A stretch of 6,500 bases of DNA from contig JAKSCF010000336.1 of assembly GCA_022360735.1 (NCBI GenBank), forward strand, positions 1 through 6,500. The letters run 5' to 3'. Positions 53-6,500 of the stretch are shown piece after piece (the stretch's first letter is position 1; each line of letters begins with the position of its first letter). Source of the DNA: Clostridia bacterium. GTDB lineage: Bacteria; Bacillota_A; Clostridia; Peptostreptococcales; JAAYPU01. A program made the position numbers and the translations under genes. Below the pieces are notes generated by a model that saw only the letters and a program-made list of their open reading frames with translations, had not been told where the DNA came from and made no database searches.

Positions 53-2455
53 TTATTTCTTTATTGTCATATAATTTTTAAAATCATATCCATCTTTATT
101 GGTAAACAAGCTTTCCATATCGCTCTTGATGGGTTTCACACTATGCATAACATGACGTAAGGCATTTAAATATGGATAATATGCGTATTGCATCACTCTA
201 AAATCAATATTTAATGGGCTCCACTTCCAAATATCAAATTCATCTTCATTAAAAATAAGCAAGCTGCCAAAATGATACGCTACCAATCCATGTTCACCAA
301 TATATAGTTGTTCATTTCTCACACTAATGGGTTCTTTAGGATTAAGAATAATATTCCACGGTGCGGTATTTATGCCATTATGTTCCGATATTTTAATGTT
401 TGAAAATAGTTGTGGAAATTGATCCAGATATTTTTGGTCTCCCCACCTTGGAAATTGTGGCTCAGGATAATCATGACACCACTCTAAACATTTCTCCATC
501 CACCATTTTAAGATAATTGAAGAAGAGCCGTCTTTGCTAAAACCTAACAAGCCCGCTTGATAAATTCCATTTGTTTTTTCCATTTCTCCCGGAGCTCTTT
601 GCCTTGTCATCAAAACAGAATGACCTTCCCATTCGTCATATATAGCTTTGGGGTGGGAGAAAAAGTAAATATCAGCATCACAATACAGCAGTTTTTCTAC
701 ATTATAATTTTCTAAAATATAGGAACATAATACTGGTTTGAGTGTCCAACAAAATTCATTTAATTTCCTGTTAGGCCTAACCGCTTTTACTCTTTCGTTT
801 TCAATTTTGTCTAAAGGCAGCAATGTAGCGTTACTTAAGTTTAAACTTTTCAGCAAAGTATAAGATTGAATATCTATACAACAAATCCATAAATGAAAAC
901 TTTCCATCTGATTTAATAAGGAACGATATAACGTAAGGACTTTAAACACATATTTTTCAGAAGCAATAGAACAAAAATAGTACATATTATCCCATTTGGA
1001 TATGATTACATCAAATTCACTGTATTTTAATGGTGTTTTGGCTTCTTCAATTTTTTTATCGCTATAACACGCACCAACTTTTTCCCCAATCATTCCCATG
1101 GAGTTTCTTAGCGCCATTAGGTAGGGTAGATATATCCCATTTTTTATAACATTACTGATTTTAATACTGCCTAAGTTCCACAAGTCATAGTGGTCCTGAT
1201 CAAATATATCAATACATGCGAAATGATAAGCAACCAATTCATAGCCTTCAATCAATACATTGGCTTCACTACGTGTGATCTGATAATTATTGTTGTATAT
1301 CGTATTCCACGGCGCAGCGTTAATGCCTAAATGTCCGGATATTTTTGTATCTGCAAAAAGTCTTGGTAAATGATCTAAATATTTTTGATCGCCCCATCGG
1401 TCGCTATCGGGATCTTCTCTTAGGTAACACCACTCCAAGCATTTCTGTTTCCACCAGTTGACCGCATTTCTGCCTATTTCATTATTTTTGAAACCAACGA
1501 GTCCTGCTTGATATACACCATACTTTTTTTCAACCCAATCCAGATCTCTTTGCAAACATAAATATAAGGAGGCCTCACCCCAATCATTGTAAATCGCCAT
1601 AGTATCTGAGAAAAAATACATATCGGAATCACAATATATAACAGAATTGACTTTGTAATGTTCGAAAATATAAGAAATGAGCCAAGATTTCATCGTCCAA
1701 CAATACTCGCTCATTGTTCGGGATTGTCTAGTTTGCCGCAATGCATCTGTCTCAACATCTTTAACATGAATGAGAATAACATTTTCAAACTGTTTTTCAT
1801 TTAAAAACTCATAAATAAAGTCATCCATGCAGCAAATAAATAATTTATAGTCGGTTGTTACACGATTTAATGATTCATAAAAAGCCAATATTTTAATTAA
1901 ATATTTTGTTCCGGCTATTGAACAAAAACATTGTTTTGGATCACCACATCCTTTCCTGATATCCAAAGCTAATTCTTGCCGATCCATGATGCTATCAATT
2001 TGTTCCTGAATATTTTCCACCTGCTGCTCACATGTGAATTCTACATCCATTGTCGTCATCTCCATTTGTTCTTGTAGTACATCTGCCAACCTAAGAATTT
2101 CTTGTAGGTTAATCCGCTCATCAACCCCTTCTTCATATGGTTTGATATCTTTCGCCGGCCCCGCGGGCTTCTCTCCCGGGACTTCTACTACTGGGTCCAT
2201 CACCGGCTGCACTGCGATATTCTCTACTACTGGGTCCATCACCGGCTGCTCTGGGATATTCTTTACCGGATCCTCTACTACTGGGTCCATCACCGGTTGA
2301 TCCGCAATATTCTCTACCGGGTCCTTTACCGGGTCTTTGTTCTTAATTTTACAAAAGCTTTGCTTGATTCTAACACTTAGCTTATGAAAAAAATTTGTAA
2401 TGGCATGCATTACCCTCATGGTAATATTTCTGATTTTTATAATAAACCCCGTCAA
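53..2455 (-). CDS. Tandem-domain GT-A glycosyltransferase with basic N-terminus and Pro/Val/Asp repeat linker
   Basis: Predicted protein of 800 residues (numbered from TTG 2455) with two copies of a GT-A nucleotide-sugar transferase domain, roughly 171-465 and 488-782. The domains align in exact register 317 residues apart: FCSIA (ending near 181 and 498), DxD metal/nucleotide motifs YCDSDMYFF (D276, D278) and YCDADIYFF (D593, D595), RWGDQKYLD (from 353 and 670), GIN-APWN, and LVAYHF. The fold resembles GT8-like putative nucleotide-diphospho-sugar transferases; donor and acceptor are unknown. In front are a basic, amphipathic stretch (about 1-40), a repeat linker (41-91) and a probable coiled-coil segment (about 110-160). 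There is no clear signal peptide or membrane helix, so it is probably cytosolic or peripheral to the membrane. The frame stays open to a TTG at 2557, but that start has no good ribosome binding site, whereas TTG 2455 follows AAGGAGG. It lies between a nucleotidyltransferase gene and a dehydratase-type gene on the same strand. Both DxD motifs are intact, so both domains could be active. Confidence 0.85.
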   Translation of the reverse strand: MTGFIIKIRNITMRVMHAITNFFHKLSVRIKQSFCKIKNKDPVKDPVENIADQPVMDPVVEDPVKNIPEQPVMDPVVENIAVQPVMDPVVEVPGEKPAGPAKDIKPYEEGVDERINLQEILRLADVLQEQMEMTTMDVEFTCEQQVENIQEQIDSIMDRQELALDIRKGCGDPKQCFCSIAGTKYLIKILAFYESLNRVTTDYKLFICCMDDFIYEFLNEKQFENVILIHVKDVETDALRQTRQSRTMSEYCWTMKSWLISYIFEHYKVNSVIYCDSDMYFFSDTMAIYNDWGEASLYLCLQRDLDWVEKKYGVYQAGLVGFKNNEIGRNAVNWWKQKCLEWCYLREDPDSDRWGDQKYLDHLPRLFADTKISGHLGINAAPWNTIYNNNYQITRSEANVLIEGYELVAYHFACIDIFDQDHYDLWNLGSIKISNVIKNGIYLPYLMALRNSMGMIGEKVGACYSDKKIEEAKTPLKYSEFDVIISKWDNMYYFCSIASEKYVFKVLTLYRSLLNQMESFHLWICCIDIQSYTLLKSLNLSNATLLPLDKIENERVKAVRPNRKLNEFCWTLKPVLCSYILENYNVEKLLYCDADIYFFSHPKAIYDEWEGHSVLMTRQRAPGEMEKTNGIYQAGLLGFSKDGSSSIILKWWMEKCLEWCHDYPEPQFPRWGDQKYLDQFPQLFSNIKISEHNGINTAPWNIILNPKEPISVRNEQLYIGEHGLVAYHFGSLLIFNEDEFDIWKWSPLNIDFRVMQYAYYPYLNALRHVMHSVKPIKSDMESLFTNKDGYDFKNYMTIKK
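2183..2335 (-). repeat. In-frame 39-nt direct repeats encoding a 13-residue Pro/Val/Asp unit
   Basis: Three 13-codon units occupy 2311-2273, 2260-2222 and 2221-2183 and encode NIADQPVMDPVVE, NIPEQPVMDPVVE and NIAVQPVMDPVVE. A four-codon DPVK insert separates the first two, and two further DPV triplets precede them (to 2335). At DNA level, a 27-nt core beginning TCTACTACTGGGTCCATC recurs on the plus strand at 2184, 2223 and 2274; the third copy differs only in its last bases. Unit length is a multiple of three, so gain or loss of a copy would keep the reading frame. The region is locally GC-rich (37 of 60 bases in 2161-2220, against 21 of 60 in 2401-2460). It probably forms an extended linker between the basic N-terminus and the catalytic domains. 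Confidence 0.9.
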
Positions 2456-2632: not shown

Positions 2633-3385
2633 TTACTTCATATTTAAATCTAACAATGCATTTGCATTCTCAATATCTTTATTCGTATCAATTCCAATCC
2701 AGTAACCTTTATGCTCATAAACCGCTAACTCTCCAATGCTGCCTAATTCTTTAAGCAATGTTTCTTCTAATACACAATTTTTGTCTTCACTAAGATATGA
2801 AAGTATTTGCTTACTACAGACAAAAAAGCCTCCATTGACAATATGATCTAAAAGGGGCTTTTCTTTGAAGCTTGTAGCAATCCCGTCTTTTACTGTTAAA
2901 ATGCCGTAATTACTTTTATACGCTATTCCCGTAACTGTTGCCAACTTTCCTTTTCTATGATGATAGTCTATCAATGCATCAATATTAATGTCTGAGATCC
3001 CATCACCATAAGTGAGTAAAAAAGGATCTGTTTTTATATACTTTTCAAGTTTTTTTACTCTTGCTCCTGTCATAGTATCTTCGCCGGTATCGACGAAGGT
3101 AATATTCCAATCTTCTTTAGGTTTTTCAACATAGTCAATCTTTTCAATTCCGAGATTATACTTATAGTTAGAATGATATATATTATAATTGTGAAAATAA
3201 TCTTTGATGACATTACCTTTATAACCTAAAGGTAATAAGAAATCATTATATCCATAATTACTATAATGCTTCATAATATGCCAGATAATAGGCTTTCCTT
3301 TCACAATTGCCAGTGGTTTAGGGATTGAAGATGTTACATGGCTCATTCTTAGTCCTTTACCGCCGCATAAAATGATGACATCCAA
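2633..3385 (-). CDS. rfbF: Glucose-1-phosphate cytidylyltransferase-like sugar nucleotidyltransferase
   Basis: A 250-residue protein of the sugar-1-phosphate nucleotidyltransferase family, close to the usual RfbF length of about 257. It would join a nucleoside triphosphate to a hexose-1-phosphate, most likely CTP plus glucose-1-phosphate to CDP-glucose and pyrophosphate, in the cytoplasm. Visible motifs are the N-terminal nucleotide-binding loop LCGGKGLRM (6-14), I-P-K-P with K23, GKPIIWHIMKHYSNYG (30-45), DTGEDTMTGARV (99-110), YGDG with D128 (126-129), FKEKP (173-177), NGGFFV (184-189) and GYWIGIDT with D233. The WHIMK-YS-YG block and the DTG-D-MTG-R block are typical of the cytidylyltransferase subgroup, more than of RmlA or GalU. 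An oddity is GGKGLRM where the family normally has GGxGTRL. The start is TTG at 3385, placed so that the first beta strand is complete; AAGGA and GTGAG lie 11 and 5 nt upstream. It is the first gene of the leftward unit and probably supplies the donor sugar used by its neighbours. CTP versus UTP specificity is not proven. Confidence 0.8.
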   Translation of the reverse strand: MDVIILCGGKGLRMSHVTSSIPKPLAIVKGKPIIWHIMKHYSNYGYNDFLLPLGYKGNVIKDYFHNYNIYHSNYKYNLGIEKIDYVEKPKEDWNITFVDTGEDTMTGARVKKLEKYIKTDPFLLTYGDGISDINIDALIDYHHRKGKLATVTGIAYKSNYGILTVKDGIATSFKEKPLLDHIVNGGFFVCSKQILSYLSEDKNCVLEETLLKELGSIGELAVYEHKGYWIGIDTNKDIENANALLDLNMK

Positions 3386-3478: not shown

Positions 3479-3497
3479 CCCTAGGTAATACCTAGGG
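3479..3497. promoter_or_regulatory. Perfect 19-bp palindrome, candidate operator or leader hairpin
   Basis: CCCTAGGTAATACCTAGGG is a perfect inverted repeat with 9-bp arms about a central A. It ends 17 bp before the ATG of the rightward gene and just before its ribosome binding site. As DNA it could be a dimeric repressor or activator site that affects either divergent gene. As RNA it could fold as a 7-bp stem with a TAATA loop directly upstream of the ribosome binding site and modulate translation. No regulator gene is visible in the window. Confidence 0.55.
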
Positions 3498-3503
3498 AAA
3501 ACT

Positions 3504-3510
3504 GGGGTGA
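3504..3510 (+). promoter_or_regulatory. Ribosome binding site of the wall-binding glycosyltransferase fusion
   Basis: GGGGTGA, close to the GGAGGTGA anti-16S complement, lies 4 nt before the ATG at 3515. It fixes the start, which is also where the peptidoglycan-binding domain begins, so no signal peptide is hidden upstream. Confidence 0.7.
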
Positions 3511-3514
3511 GATT

Positions 3515-6500
3515 ATGGAAACAATAAAAATTGGATCTACTGTACCTGTTGTAAAACCACTGCAAAATTTGCTTACAAGGCTAGGACTATATCAACACAG
3601 TATTGATGGTATATATGGATTTTTTACAGAAAAAGCTATCATTGCTTATCAAGAATCTAAGCATTTAAAATCAGATGGCATAGTAGGTCCTATTACATGG
3701 AAATCTTTTGATGATCCATCCAACCCATATATACCTTATACGATAAGATCAGGAGATACGTTACGTGAAATCAGTAAAAAATATTCAACCACTGTTAACG
3801 AAATAGTATTAACGAATCCTGAAGTCAATTTAGAAAGTTTAATTCCAAATGAAATCATTATTATTCCCCTTAAAACCATTGATTTGGATACTATTAAAAT
3901 AAATGTTTCAGATACCATTGAAACCGATCAAGAAAATATCATGCAAGGTTTAGAAAATCCTATTATTTGTGAATTACCCTTAGTCTCAATTTTATTACCT
4001 GTATACAACCATGCCCATTTTTTAAAACAAACCATTGGCTCTGTACAAAATCAATCGTATACCAACTGGGAATTAATTATTATAGATGATGGTTCTACTG
4101 ATGATACGCCAGAGGTTTTAAAACAATATGAAACGGATTATAGAATTCAGATATATCACCAGCCCAACCAAAAAGTGCCTCGAACCCTTACTCATCTGCA
4201 CACTTTGGTTAAAGGCCAGCTGATTACATGGATTTCATCTGATAATTATATGGCCCCCACTATGCTTGAAGAATTGGTCAAATATCTGATTCAATATCCG
4301 GATATCTCTATGGTTTATGCAGACCCGGCACTTATTAAAGAAAATGGAGAATATCTGCATGAAAATGGGTATCGAGATCAAAACAGAGACCGGGAAAGAC
4401 CCTATATATTGCGACTACCTCAAGACACAGAATCTTTAGGATCTGAGTTTGATAATTATATAAATGCTTGTTTTTTATACAAAAGAGATGAAGCCGTTGC
4501 TATGGCAGGTCATTATTTTGAAGATTTAAACGGAATGGAAGATTATGATTTTTGGTTGAGACTTATTAAAGGTGGTAAGATACACCATATCAATAATCAA
4601 AAACCTTTGTATTACTATAGGGTTCATGACAAATCACTGAGTAACCAGATACAGGAAAAACATCTTAGTGATTATCAAGAGCGGAGTGAAAAGCTGTTGG
4701 CTTTAGACAAACAACGCACAGAATACGCCAGTAAGCCATGGATGGTTAAAATGAGTCGAAAAGCAAAAAGATATTTAAAACAACATCCTAAACTTTTTAA
4801 ATTTTTAAATCAATATAAATGGCAAGTAACCGATAAAAAAATTCATTTTGTCTGCCCTAACGAAACCGTAAGCCTTAAAGACGGCCAATGCTTTGTAAGA
4901 TTATATCAGGATCGCTTTGATCTATATAAATACAAAGACTATGATTACCAGCTCATTGCATCCATTGAATTTGGTAATGAAATGGATGCATTAGCTCTGA
5001 AAGCGCGATACACCCATACCGATAATCCTTTTTGGGAGTTTCCATCCTCTTATAAAAAGAAAATCATTGGGATACATCTGCCTCTTTCTTATATAGATGT
5101 TGACAAAACCATTAAAATAATGAAAATATATGAGGATTATTTCTTTATTTTAACCGATACACTTGAAAACTCAAGCGTCAAAAATGCAAAGCTTATTACA
5201 GAAGCCGTTACCAACTGTGCATTTATTGGAATGAAAGAAATGGGTAAGGATTATTGGATGTACAGCGGTTTAGATTGTATGTTGGTTCCTCCCTTGCTGG
5301 AATCAAGCCATTGTTATTCGATTATTAATAAAAGCTGTTTGTTAAGCTGGTCAATAGGAAAATGGTTATTAATACCTTCTGACTTGCAGGATGGAAAAGT
5401 TTTACCTTTTGTCTATGCTTATGATTCCAATTTTTATTTTCCTGATGTTTCTAAGTTTAATAATCCTGTTCATCATAAAGAAGTGCTCAATCGATATTTA
5501 GAAAGCCATTCTTATACCGGCAGAATAAAAAAACTATTCTCGTTATGTAATTTAGCTACACAAGATAAAGCCGTCAAACGACCTAATTTTTCTTTTGATA
5601 TACACAAAGAAGATGTTCTACCGGTTAAAAGTGAGCCGGCCTTATCTCGTGATTTAACTTTTAAAGGATGGATTGGGCTATGCATCGACGCTTTAGACGA
5701 AGGCGGATCAGAACAAGTGGTTGCTTTTTTAGCTAAAGCCTTTAGAAGCAGAGGTATAAATGTAAAAATCTTATGTACACAAAGGGATGGAAGTATTGCC
5801 AATTATTTAGTGCAGCAAAACTTTGATGTTCGTATATATCATGGTGATTCTGAAGTCTTTAGAAAAGATCTTATTCAAGACCCGCCATTAATTGTAAATA
5901 CCCATAATACAAAGCATTTTTTAGATATATTATTGGATTTGAATATTCCTATTGTAGAATCTATTGAAGATATGTACATCTATTTTTCTGAGGAAGATTG
6001 GCAAGAAGAAAAGATCAGGAGCAGATGTTTTAATCAAGTCATTGCAGCATCAAACTATGTTAAAACATATTATTTGATGAAAAATGATGCGGTTTCAGAG
6101 CAGCAGATTGTTTTAATTGAAAACGCAGGAGATCCGTCAAGATGCAGTGGCCGAGAAAGAATTTTTACTCGAAATTTTTTAAATATCGGTTCTAATGATT
6201 TTGTTTTTTTATCCATTGCCTCAATAGATGGCAGAAAAAATCAATTGGGTATGATGACGGCTTATGATTCTTTTTATAATCATTATAGTAAAGATTCCAA
6301 ATTTATTTTTTCAGGTCATATTTTTGATCCCAATTACTACTATGAGATGTTAGCCTATAGAGAAAATTTAAATTCTAAAAATAATATTTTGATTTTGCCA
6401 TATGCTAATGATAAGCCGGGAATGGATGTGGGCAGTTTGTATCAAGCTTCAGATTTATTTGTTTTAGACTCATATTTTGAAGGATGGAGTACGACGGCTA
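3515..6500 (+). CDS. Multidomain glycosyltransferase: PG-binding + LysM + GT2 + unassigned region + GT4 (partial, C-terminus missing)
   Basis: One uninterrupted frame of 995 codons runs from ATG 3515 off the right edge. Domain order: a peptidoglycan-binding-1-like domain (about 8-66; DGIYG 31-35, DGIVGP 54-59, W62); LysM (75-118; YTIRSGDTL and ending IPNEIIIIP); a GT2 glycosyltransferase (about 155-385; VSILLPVYN, IIIDDGSTDDT with D191/D192, WISSDN at 239-244 in the metal-site position, MEDYDFWLRL at 341-350); about 300 residues with no recognised family (roughly 400-700); then a GT4-like GT-B enzyme (from about 716; DEGGSEQVV 728-736, SIDGRKNQ around K908, and SYFEGW with E989, the first Glu of the usual E-x7-E motif). 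The second Glu and the end of the domain are outside the window. No signal peptide or membrane helix is seen, so the catalytic domains should be cytoplasmic and would use nucleotide sugars. It is transcribed away from the nucleotidyltransferase gene. The likely role is assembly of a surface or spore-associated glycan; donor, acceptor and linkage are unknown. Confidence 0.88.
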   Translation, partial: METIKIGSTVPVVKPLQNLLTRLGLYQHSIDGIYGFFTEKAIIAYQESKHLKSDGIVGPITWKSFDDPSNPYIPYTIRSGDTLREISKKYSTTVNEIVLTNPEVNLESLIPNEIIIIPLKTIDLDTIKINVSDTIETDQENIMQGLENPIICELPLVSILLPVYNHAHFLKQTIGSVQNQSYTNWELIIIDDGSTDDTPEVLKQYETDYRIQIYHQPNQKVPRTLTHLHTLVKGQLITWISSDNYMAPTMLEELVKYLIQYPDISMVYADPALIKENGEYLHENGYRDQNRDRERPYILRLPQDTESLGSEFDNYINACFLYKRDEAVAMAGHYFEDLNGMEDYDFWLRLIKGGKIHHINNQKPLYYYRVHDKSLSNQIQEKHLSDYQERSEKLLALDKQRTEYASKPWMVKMSRKAKRYLKQHPKLFKFLNQYKWQVTDKKIHFVCPNETVSLKDGQCFVRLYQDRFDLYKYKDYDYQLIASIEFGNEMDALALKARYTHTDNPFWEFPSSYKKKIIGIHLPLSYIDVDKTIKIMKIYEDYFFILTDTLENSSVKNAKLITEAVTNCAFIGMKEMGKDYWMYSGLDCMLVPPLLESSHCYSIINKSCLLSWSIGKWLLIPSDLQDGKVLPFVYAYDSNFYFPDVSKFNNPVHHKEVLNRYLESHSYTGRIKKLFSLCNLATQDKAVKRPNFSFDIHKEDVLPVKSEPALSRDLTFKGWIGLCIDALDEGGSEQVVAFLAKAFRSRGINVKILCTQRDGSIANYLVQQNFDVRIYHGDSEVFRKDLIQDPPLIVNTHNTKHFLDILLDLNIPIVESIEDMYIYFSEEDWQEEKIRSRCFNQVIAASNYVKTYYLMKNDAVSEQQIVLIENAGDPSRCSGRERIFTRNFLNIGSNDFVFLSIASIDGRKNQLGMMTAYDSFYNHYSKDSKFIFSGHIFDPNYYYEMLAYRENLNSKNNILILPYANDKPGMDVGSLYQASDLFVLDSYFEGWSTTA

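What the first reader, a model, noticed from the sequence alone, without database searches (positions are those of the whole stretch)
3515..6500. Wall-binding modules fused to two glycosyltransferases in one polypeptide
The frame joins a peptidoglycan-binding-1 domain and a LysM domain to a GT2 and then a GT4 glycosyltransferase. Such binding modules usually sit on secreted hydrolases, yet no signal peptide is seen and the ribosome binding site pins the start at the binding domain. A cytoplasmic protein with LysM is reminiscent of mother-cell spore-coat factors. The enzyme may therefore be tethered to the forespore surface or to lipid-linked wall precursors to build a glycan there. The architecture is read from the sequence; the spore link is inference.
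Basis: partly seen in the sequence, partly recalled or inferred. Interest (0 to 1): 0.75.

Follow-up and report, generated by a model that had tools for sequence, protein, structure and literature searches.

The report
Wall-binding modules on a glycan synthase
A bacterial protein that appears to stay inside the cell joins two small modules that usually bind cell-wall sugar chains to two sugar-transferring enzymes, and its neighbour belongs to a family seen in spore-forming bacteria, so it may be a glycan-building enzyme addressed to the surface of the developing spore, which is still unproven.

Summary
The architecture is real. The + strand frame 3515-6500 (3' end beyond the window) encodes PG_binding_1, LysM, GT2 and GT4, each over its Pfam cut-off. 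An in-frame TAG at 3482 and the lack of a hydrophobic stretch indicate a cytoplasmic protein. Two relatives (82%, 67%) share the architecture, so it is no assembly artefact; none of the other 117 listed relatives carries either module. The spore link rests on context. The divergent neighbour (53-2455, minus) is a tandem GT-A enzyme; its 41 listed homologues with an organism name are all Bacillaceae-, Paenibacillus- or Clostridium-type. In two near-identical Paenibacillus proteins that enzyme carries its own signal-less PG_binding_1, an independent wall-binding/GT fusion. Around 12 distant tandem GTs lies a sugar-nucleotide cassette, with YheC/D-type genes close by in 6. Against: the host is unknown, no sporulation promoter stands out, SpoIVA does not discriminate, and the GT2-GT4 body also occurs in phyla not known to sporulate. 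Best reading: a spore-surface glycan synthase docked to the forespore by wall-precursor-binding modules, about 0.45. New variant of a known kind.

The parts
3515..6500 (+). PG_binding_1 - LysM - GT2 - middle region - GT4 polypeptide, 995 aa seen, 3' end beyond the window
3504..3510 (+). ribosome-binding-site-like ggggtga; in-frame TAG at 3482-3484 pins the ATG at 3515
3551..3703 (+). PG_binding_1 domain, residues 13-63
   Evidence: 49.0 bits; nearest solved chains 4lpq E 1.3e-7, 5tv7 E 2.3e-7
3737..3868 (+). LysM domain, residues 75-118
   Evidence: 28.7 bits; LytE, SafA 7r1l and YaaH 4s3k among the matched chains
3986..4480 (+). GT2 (GT-A) domain, Pfam match residues 158-322, with DDGSTD and SSDN; the ED of GMEDYD follows at 342-343
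4805..5656 (+). middle region, residues 431-714, folded confidently in the model of P0002; no Pfam match over cut-off
5702..6496 (+). GT4 (GT-B) domain, residues 730-994, cut by the window's end
2633..3385 (-). RfbF-like sugar-1-phosphate nucleotidyltransferase, 250 aa
   Evidence: TIGR02623 259.5 bits, below the cut-off of 300.25
53..2455 (-). tandem GT-A glycosyltransferase, TTG start after AGGAGG; N-terminal cationic amphipathic helix, DPV-repeat spacer, two GT domains each with D-x-D

Best explanation
The protein is a cytoplasmic two-headed glycosyltransferase (GT-A head plus GT-B head) that makes or extends a surface glycan. Its N-terminal PG_binding_1-LysM pair is an address tag: it holds the enzyme on GlcNAc/MurNAc-bearing material reachable from the cytosol, most likely lipid-linked peptidoglycan precursors at the forespore outer membrane of a sporulating cell. 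With the divergent neighbours (a sugar nucleotidyltransferase and a tandem glycosyltransferase that may itself be addressed, here by an amphipathic helix and in Paenibacillus by PG_binding_1) it would build a spore-surface polysaccharide, comparable in role to the yfnHGFED crust-glycan genes of Bacillus subtilis. Shown: architecture, cytoplasmic make-up, conservation, GT2 catalytic residues, neighbours, independent second fusion. Inferred: spore role, ligand, tethering.
For: Domains over cut-off and start pinned. The architecture is kept in 3 of 3 members; P0001 against P0003 identity is PGBD 69%, LysM 54%, GT2 81%, GT4 59-67%. GT2 catalytic residues are kept in the window. P0124, the 73% homologue of the tandem GT, lies on a contig of the same length (10,615) as P0003, which suggests conserved linkage. 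Tandem-GT homologues: 41 of the 120 listed carry an organism name, all Bacillaceae-, Paenibacillus- or Clostridium-type. P0192 and P0201 (Paenibacillus) carry PG_binding_1 at residues 11-65 with no signal peptide on the same kind of enzyme. An RfbF-like gene lies near the tandem GT in 11 of 12 fetched loci and YheC/D-type genes in 6 of 12. yheC/yheD and yfnHGF-yfnED are mother-cell genes, and yfnHGFED mutants alter the crust (PMC517825, PMC7439481, PMC11708026; passages). [quoted passage not shown]
Against: Host unknown. No sigma-K or sigma-E promoter beyond shuffles upstream of 3515. SpoIVA is about as common without the tandem GT (33 of 38) as with it (11 of 12), so the genome sample does not test a spore link. 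The tandem GT was found in only 6 of 398 and 6 of 391 genomes at E <= 1e-60. YheC/D was not looked for in control loci, several of the 12 loci are close kin (e.g. L055 and L056), and their tandem GTs are only about 28-39% identical to the window's. Body relatives occur in phyla not known to sporulate. The N-terminal part of the model has low confidence. Binding is untested.
Confidence: 0.45

Rival explanations
1. The modules are carbohydrate-binding modules that hold the enzyme's own acceptor or growing GlcNAc-containing chain, and the product is an ordinary capsule or exopolysaccharide of vegetative cells.
For: The body family is widespread and carries other N-terminal extras, such as methyltransferase, kinase or PF04230 domains. 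Its heads resemble heparosan and chondroitin synthases and a capsule multienzyme. LysM matches include Ecp6 (chitin-oligomer binding recalled).
Against: The adjacent tandem GT family is in spore-former-type taxa in all 41 named hits listed, and the second PG_binding_1 fusion sits on that family.
Confidence: 0.3
2. The enzyme glycosylates lipid-linked wall precursors or a secondary wall polymer in growing cells; the modules place it at cytosolic lipid II, independently of sporulation.
For: A cytosolic wall-binding module would meet its ligand on the inner membrane face (inference). GT2 has weak likeness to TuaG (teichuronic acid; 80.5 bits, cut-off 400).
Against: No known wall-polymer gene in the window beyond generic sugar enzymes; neighbour family with spore-former-type distribution.
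Confidence: 0.15
3. The modules are inert remnants of a chance gene fusion or an assembly chimera.
For: Only 3 members were found; LysM and linker are the least conserved parts.
Against: Three sequences keep both modules in register without gaps; PG_binding_1 is 67-87% identical in the three pairs.
Confidence: 0.08

Closest known systems
SpoVID / SipL / SafA, mother-cell LysM proteins
   Same: LysM in a mother-cell cytosolic protein; the SpoVID LysM binds lipid II (PMC10659427, passages); SafA LysM 7r1l is a sequence match, E 5.5e-5
   Different: They are coat-assembly proteins without a glycosyltransferase (recalled); no SpoVID-type domain besides LysM was found here
Bacillus subtilis yfnHGFED crust-glycan genes
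   Same: Mother-cell genes whose mutants alter the crust and expand its glycan layer. YfnH is recalled as a glucose-1-phosphate cytidylyltransferase, like 2633-3385
   Different: No wall-binding module is mentioned in the passages seen; the window's nucleotidyltransferase is below the TIGR02623 cut-off; Yfn sequences were not at hand to compare
PG_binding_1 - tandem GT of Paenibacillus (P0192, P0201)
   Same: Signal-less N-terminal PG_binding_1 on a cytoplasmic glycosyltransferase, in the family of the window's neighbour
   Different: Other glycosyltransferase type (two GT-A domains), no LysM; Pro-rich repeat spacer
Multidomain surface-glycan synthases (heparosan synthase 2, K4 chondroitin polymerase, capsule multienzyme 8qoy)
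   Same: Several glycan-building domains in one chain; GT2-type matches
   Different: Here GT-A plus GT-B with wall-binding modules in front

Membership tests
PG_binding_1 (PF01471) | Pfam gathering score | tested here: met
   49.0 bits against 23
LysM (PF01476) | Pfam gathering score | tested here: met
   28.7 bits against 20.9; GDT/GDS motif in 3 of 3 members
LysM (PF01476) | binding of GlcNAc-containing glycan | not testable with these tools
   needs a binding assay
GT2 | profile score and catalytic acidic residues | tested here: met
   94.3 bits; DD of DDGSTD, D of SSDN, ED kept in the window
GT4 | profile score and GT-B fold | tested here: met
GT4 | E-x7-E motif | tested here: inconclusive
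   first E present, second lies beyond the window; present in P0002, Q in P0003
yfnHGFED-type spore-glycan cluster | true glucose-1-phosphate cytidylyltransferase (TIGR02623) | tested here: not met
   259.5 bits against 300.25; compared as working like one, not filed as one
yfnHGFED-type spore-glycan cluster | sigma-E/sigma-K controlled expression | tested here: inconclusive
   best sigma-K-like site upstream of 3515 equalled by 111 of 200 shuffles, sigma-E-like by 200 of 200; the consensus strings were recalled
SpoVID/SipL | SPOCS domain plus LysM | tested here: not met
   no other coat-protein domain among the Pfam matches of the 995 aa

The most novel reading that the evidence does not exclude
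Spore-forming bacteria use wall-binding modules in reverse, from the cytosolic side, as address tags: an exchangeable N-terminal slot (PG_binding_1-LysM, PG_binding_1 alone, or an amphipathic helix) parks different glycan synthases on lipid-linked peptidoglycan or membrane at the forespore surface, so that glycan is laid down only where the cortex is being built.
Probability: 0.25. Interest if true: 0.75.

Novelty: new variant of a known kind. Interest (0 to 1): 0.5.

Why it matters
PG_binding_1 and LysM modules are usually met on exported proteins (established knowledge). Two unrelated glycosyltransferase scaffolds with such modules and no export signal suggest that these modules may also sort cytosolic enzymes. 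If so, it gives a testable route by which spore-surface glycan synthesis is confined to the forespore, and it extends the case of cytosolic LysM-lipid II binding known from SpoVID.

Tried and rejected
Host identification: no whole genome is held for the window. The genome-contig scan with residues 1-233 gave six partial matches (four in GT2, two in LysM), none with the architecture. P0002 in 391 genomes (class of G001; E cut-off 1e-40) gave GT2-region matches in 11, best 182 bits, and 0 of 398 genomes (phylum; cut-off 1e-50). P0123 in the orders of G334, G203 and G440: 0 of 58, 0 of 22, 0 of 4 at cut-offs of 1e-110, 1e-110 and 1e-100. None of these excludes the architecture elsewhere; the tool itself says an empty answer shows nothing. 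Viral contigs: nothing. Plasmids and phages with the whole frame: 751 and 81 records, of which 15 and 15 were listed, the listed ones covering 22-35% of the query and mostly its GT2 part. The one listed phage match that reached into the LysM part (H16) turned out, when its ORFs were read, to be adjacent GT2 genes without a LysM. The 125-residue N-terminus matched 23 plasmid records; none of the 20 listed is annotated as a glycosyltransferase, though a few bear no annotation. PADLOC: nothing for P0002 and the tandem GT. PHROGs: endolysin-type and glycosyltransferase families and one of unknown function for P0002.

Spore link through SpoIVA: uninformative, 11 of 12 with against 33 of 38 without the tandem GT. 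Promoters: not above shuffles for 3515; weak sigma-K-like scores for the two other genes (14 and 10 of 200 single-base shuffles as good), nine tests in all, so not counted. A recalled lead, that B. subtilis YkvP joins LysM to a glycosyltransferase-like domain, found no paper holding YkvP and LysM nor four of five related words, and one paper naming YkvP with spore coat and glycosyltransferase that I did not read; it is not used.

Weak steps of my own: the LysM model was trained partly on wrong-strand stretches (L033, L035, L038, L039), so its negatives are not used. The PGBD model of the same call, trained on the five fusion proteins alone, found no further fusion in the fetched stretches, nor in the 117 other proteins. 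Alignment A2 (51 rows, also used for the structure model) includes one row, P0121, that is not a glycosyltransferase; counts from it carry that error. The helix of the tandem GT was examined in seven close homologues and one Paenibacillus protein only. Sensitivity was limited to 195 candidates that share exact words, and one search scored only the 7993 candidates sharing most words, so rarity of the architecture is not proven.

Full report
What is there. The + strand frame from the ATG at 3515 runs open to the end of the window (995 codons). Pfam places PG_binding_1 (13-63), LysM (75-118), GT2 (158-322) and the two halves of a GT4 (730-876, 885-994), each over its curated cut-off. The start is fixed by an in-frame TAG at 3482-3484 with no usual start codon between and by a ribosome-binding-site-like ggggtga. 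Hydropathy shows no signal peptide and no membrane helix.

Relatives. Among 383 proteins at E <= 1e-10 the best 120 are listed. Three have PG_binding_1 and LysM: the window's own, P0002 (82%, 1118 aa) and P0003 (67%, 1106 aa); none of the other 117 listed has either by the precomputed Pfam column. In 11 full-body relatives whose body position I checked (10 end in the body within 11 residues of the C-terminus in P0004, P0005, P0008, P0026, P0036, P0041, P0045, P0057, P0058, P0061, P0083), the body starts only after 94-719 residues, so their extra domains (methyltransferase, kinase, PF04230 and others, or none named) are N-terminal. The slot in front of this body is thus variable. A search with residues 1-150 of P0002 found the same three and two PG-binding proteins without a glycosyltransferase domain. 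Between the window and P0003 the PG-binding domain is 69% identical, LysM 54%, linker 51%, GT2 81%, middle 62%, GT4 59-67%, with no gaps in either module. The modules are kept, though LysM and linker drift fastest.

Neighbours. The divergent genes are an RfbF-like nucleotidyltransferase (259.5 bits, below the equivalog cut-off of 300.25) and a tandem glycosyltransferase. The latter probably starts at the TTG at 2455 behind AGGAGG (P0123 begins there). It has an N-terminal helix predicted at 2-38 (block pLDDT 67-83), cationic and amphipathic, then a DPV-repeat spacer and two GT-A domains, each with D-x-D in 38 and 37 of 38 aligned sequences. Its best fold matches are LARGE1, lysyl hydroxylase LH3 (whose glycosyltransferase part is recalled), GlyE and glycogenin, but the two-domain superposition is poor (TM about 0.25). 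Homologues: 173 at E <= 1e-10, 120 listed; 41 of these carry an organism name, and all 41 are Bacillaceae-, Paenibacillus- or Clostridium-type (one only 'Clostridiales bacterium'), which I know as endospore formers; they include many near kin. Distant relatives at 23-31% occur on 12 plasmid records of Azospirillum, Rhizobium and others, so the restriction holds for the closer family only. P0124 (73%) is on a contig of 10,615 bases, the same length as the contig of P0003; I infer that the two genes are linked there too.

A second fusion. P0192 and P0201, from Paenibacillus profundus and Paenibacillus sp. MER TA 81-3, are 821-residue members of the tandem-GT family with PG_binding_1 at 11-65 (48.3 bits, cut-off 23), starting almost at residue 1 and without signal peptide. 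They are near-identical to each other and count as one event; they are 2 of the 120 listed. A wall-binding domain has therefore been placed in front of two different cytoplasmic glycosyltransferase types that occur together in this locus.

Cassette. The tandem GT was matched at E <= 1e-60 in 6 of 398 and 6 of 391 genomes. Around these 12 I fetched 8-19 kb each. An RfbF-like gene is present in 11 of 12, a nucleotide sugar dehydrogenase in 10, a cupin in 8, and YheC/D-type ATP-grasp genes in 6 (BLASTP; families named on single representatives). The gene set is a sugar-nucleotide pathway plus transferases. yheC/yheD and yfnHGF-yfnED belong to the mother-cell programme of B. subtilis, and yfnHGFED mutants alter the crust (PMC517825, PMC7439481, PMC11708026; passages only). 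Caveats: these tandem GTs are only about 28-39% identical to the window's, several of the 12 genomes are kin, control loci were not searched for YheC/D, and none of the 12 stretches holds a PG_binding_1-GT fusion.

Mechanism. A wall-binding module without export can only meet wall material from inside: lipid I/II on the cytosolic face, or, in a mother cell, the engulfed forespore (inference). [quoted passage not shown] I therefore favour docking of the synthase at the forespore surface for a spore-surface glycan (0.45). Shown steps are architecture, cytoplasmic make-up, GT2 catalytic residues, conservation and neighbours; ligand, place and time are inferred. The main rival is that the modules hold the enzyme's own acceptor chain in an ordinary surface-glycan pathway (0.3).

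What speaks against. The host is unknown. No sporulation promoter stands out upstream of 3515. SpoIVA does not separate genomes with and without the tandem GT (11 of 12 against 33 of 38). The GT2-GT4 body occurs in phyla not known to sporulate: of 5 hits with an organism name among the 120, Anaerolineales and Omnitrophica cover 85% of the query, the other three 27-29%. In print: searches for LysM with glycosyltransferase, peptidoglycan-binding domain, fusion and spore coat (2 papers), for multidomain glycosyltransferase with LysM domain (none) and for CBM50, GT2, LysM, appended (2 papers) listed no paper whose title or abstract start describes such a protein; of these four papers I saw passages of one (PMC10659427) and only the listing of the others, and the library is open-access only.

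Verdict. Observation confirmed; interpretation partly supported; new variant of a known kind, interest 0.5.

Noticed in passing
3479-3497: Perfect inverted repeat (read on the minus strand CCCTAGGTATTACCTAGGG) just upstream of the ribosome-binding site of the main gene, reported as a terminator-like hairpin on the minus strand. It might be an operator or 5' UTR hairpin.
   Followed up: no
2564-2595: Inverted repeat TAGGTGGCAT...ATGCCACCTA, seen by eye, between the nucleotidyltransferase and the tandem GT genes, without a T run.
   Followed up: no
2169-2317: In-frame repeats encoding PVMDPVVE-type units between the N-terminal helix and the first GT domain of the tandem GT. Several homologues have other low-complexity spacers, for example KEKAKQE repeats in P0205.
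   Followed up: partly
L049:121-861, L054:15923-16681, L055:7442-8206, L056:9649-10413: A protein family of about 250 aa, 60-98% identical, next to the tandem-GT cassette in 4 of 12 loci; the three members scanned have no Pfam match.
   Followed up: partly
L050:15889-16563 and 16820-17137, L054:13592-13924: Small proteins sharing a block like NLLLASIALEELGLAHIINAE near the cassette, no Pfam match.
   Followed up: no
P0003 GT4 domain: The GT4 head of the 67% relative has lost the GG-x-E motif and one glutamate of E-x7-E, which suggests an inactive head.
   Followed up: partly
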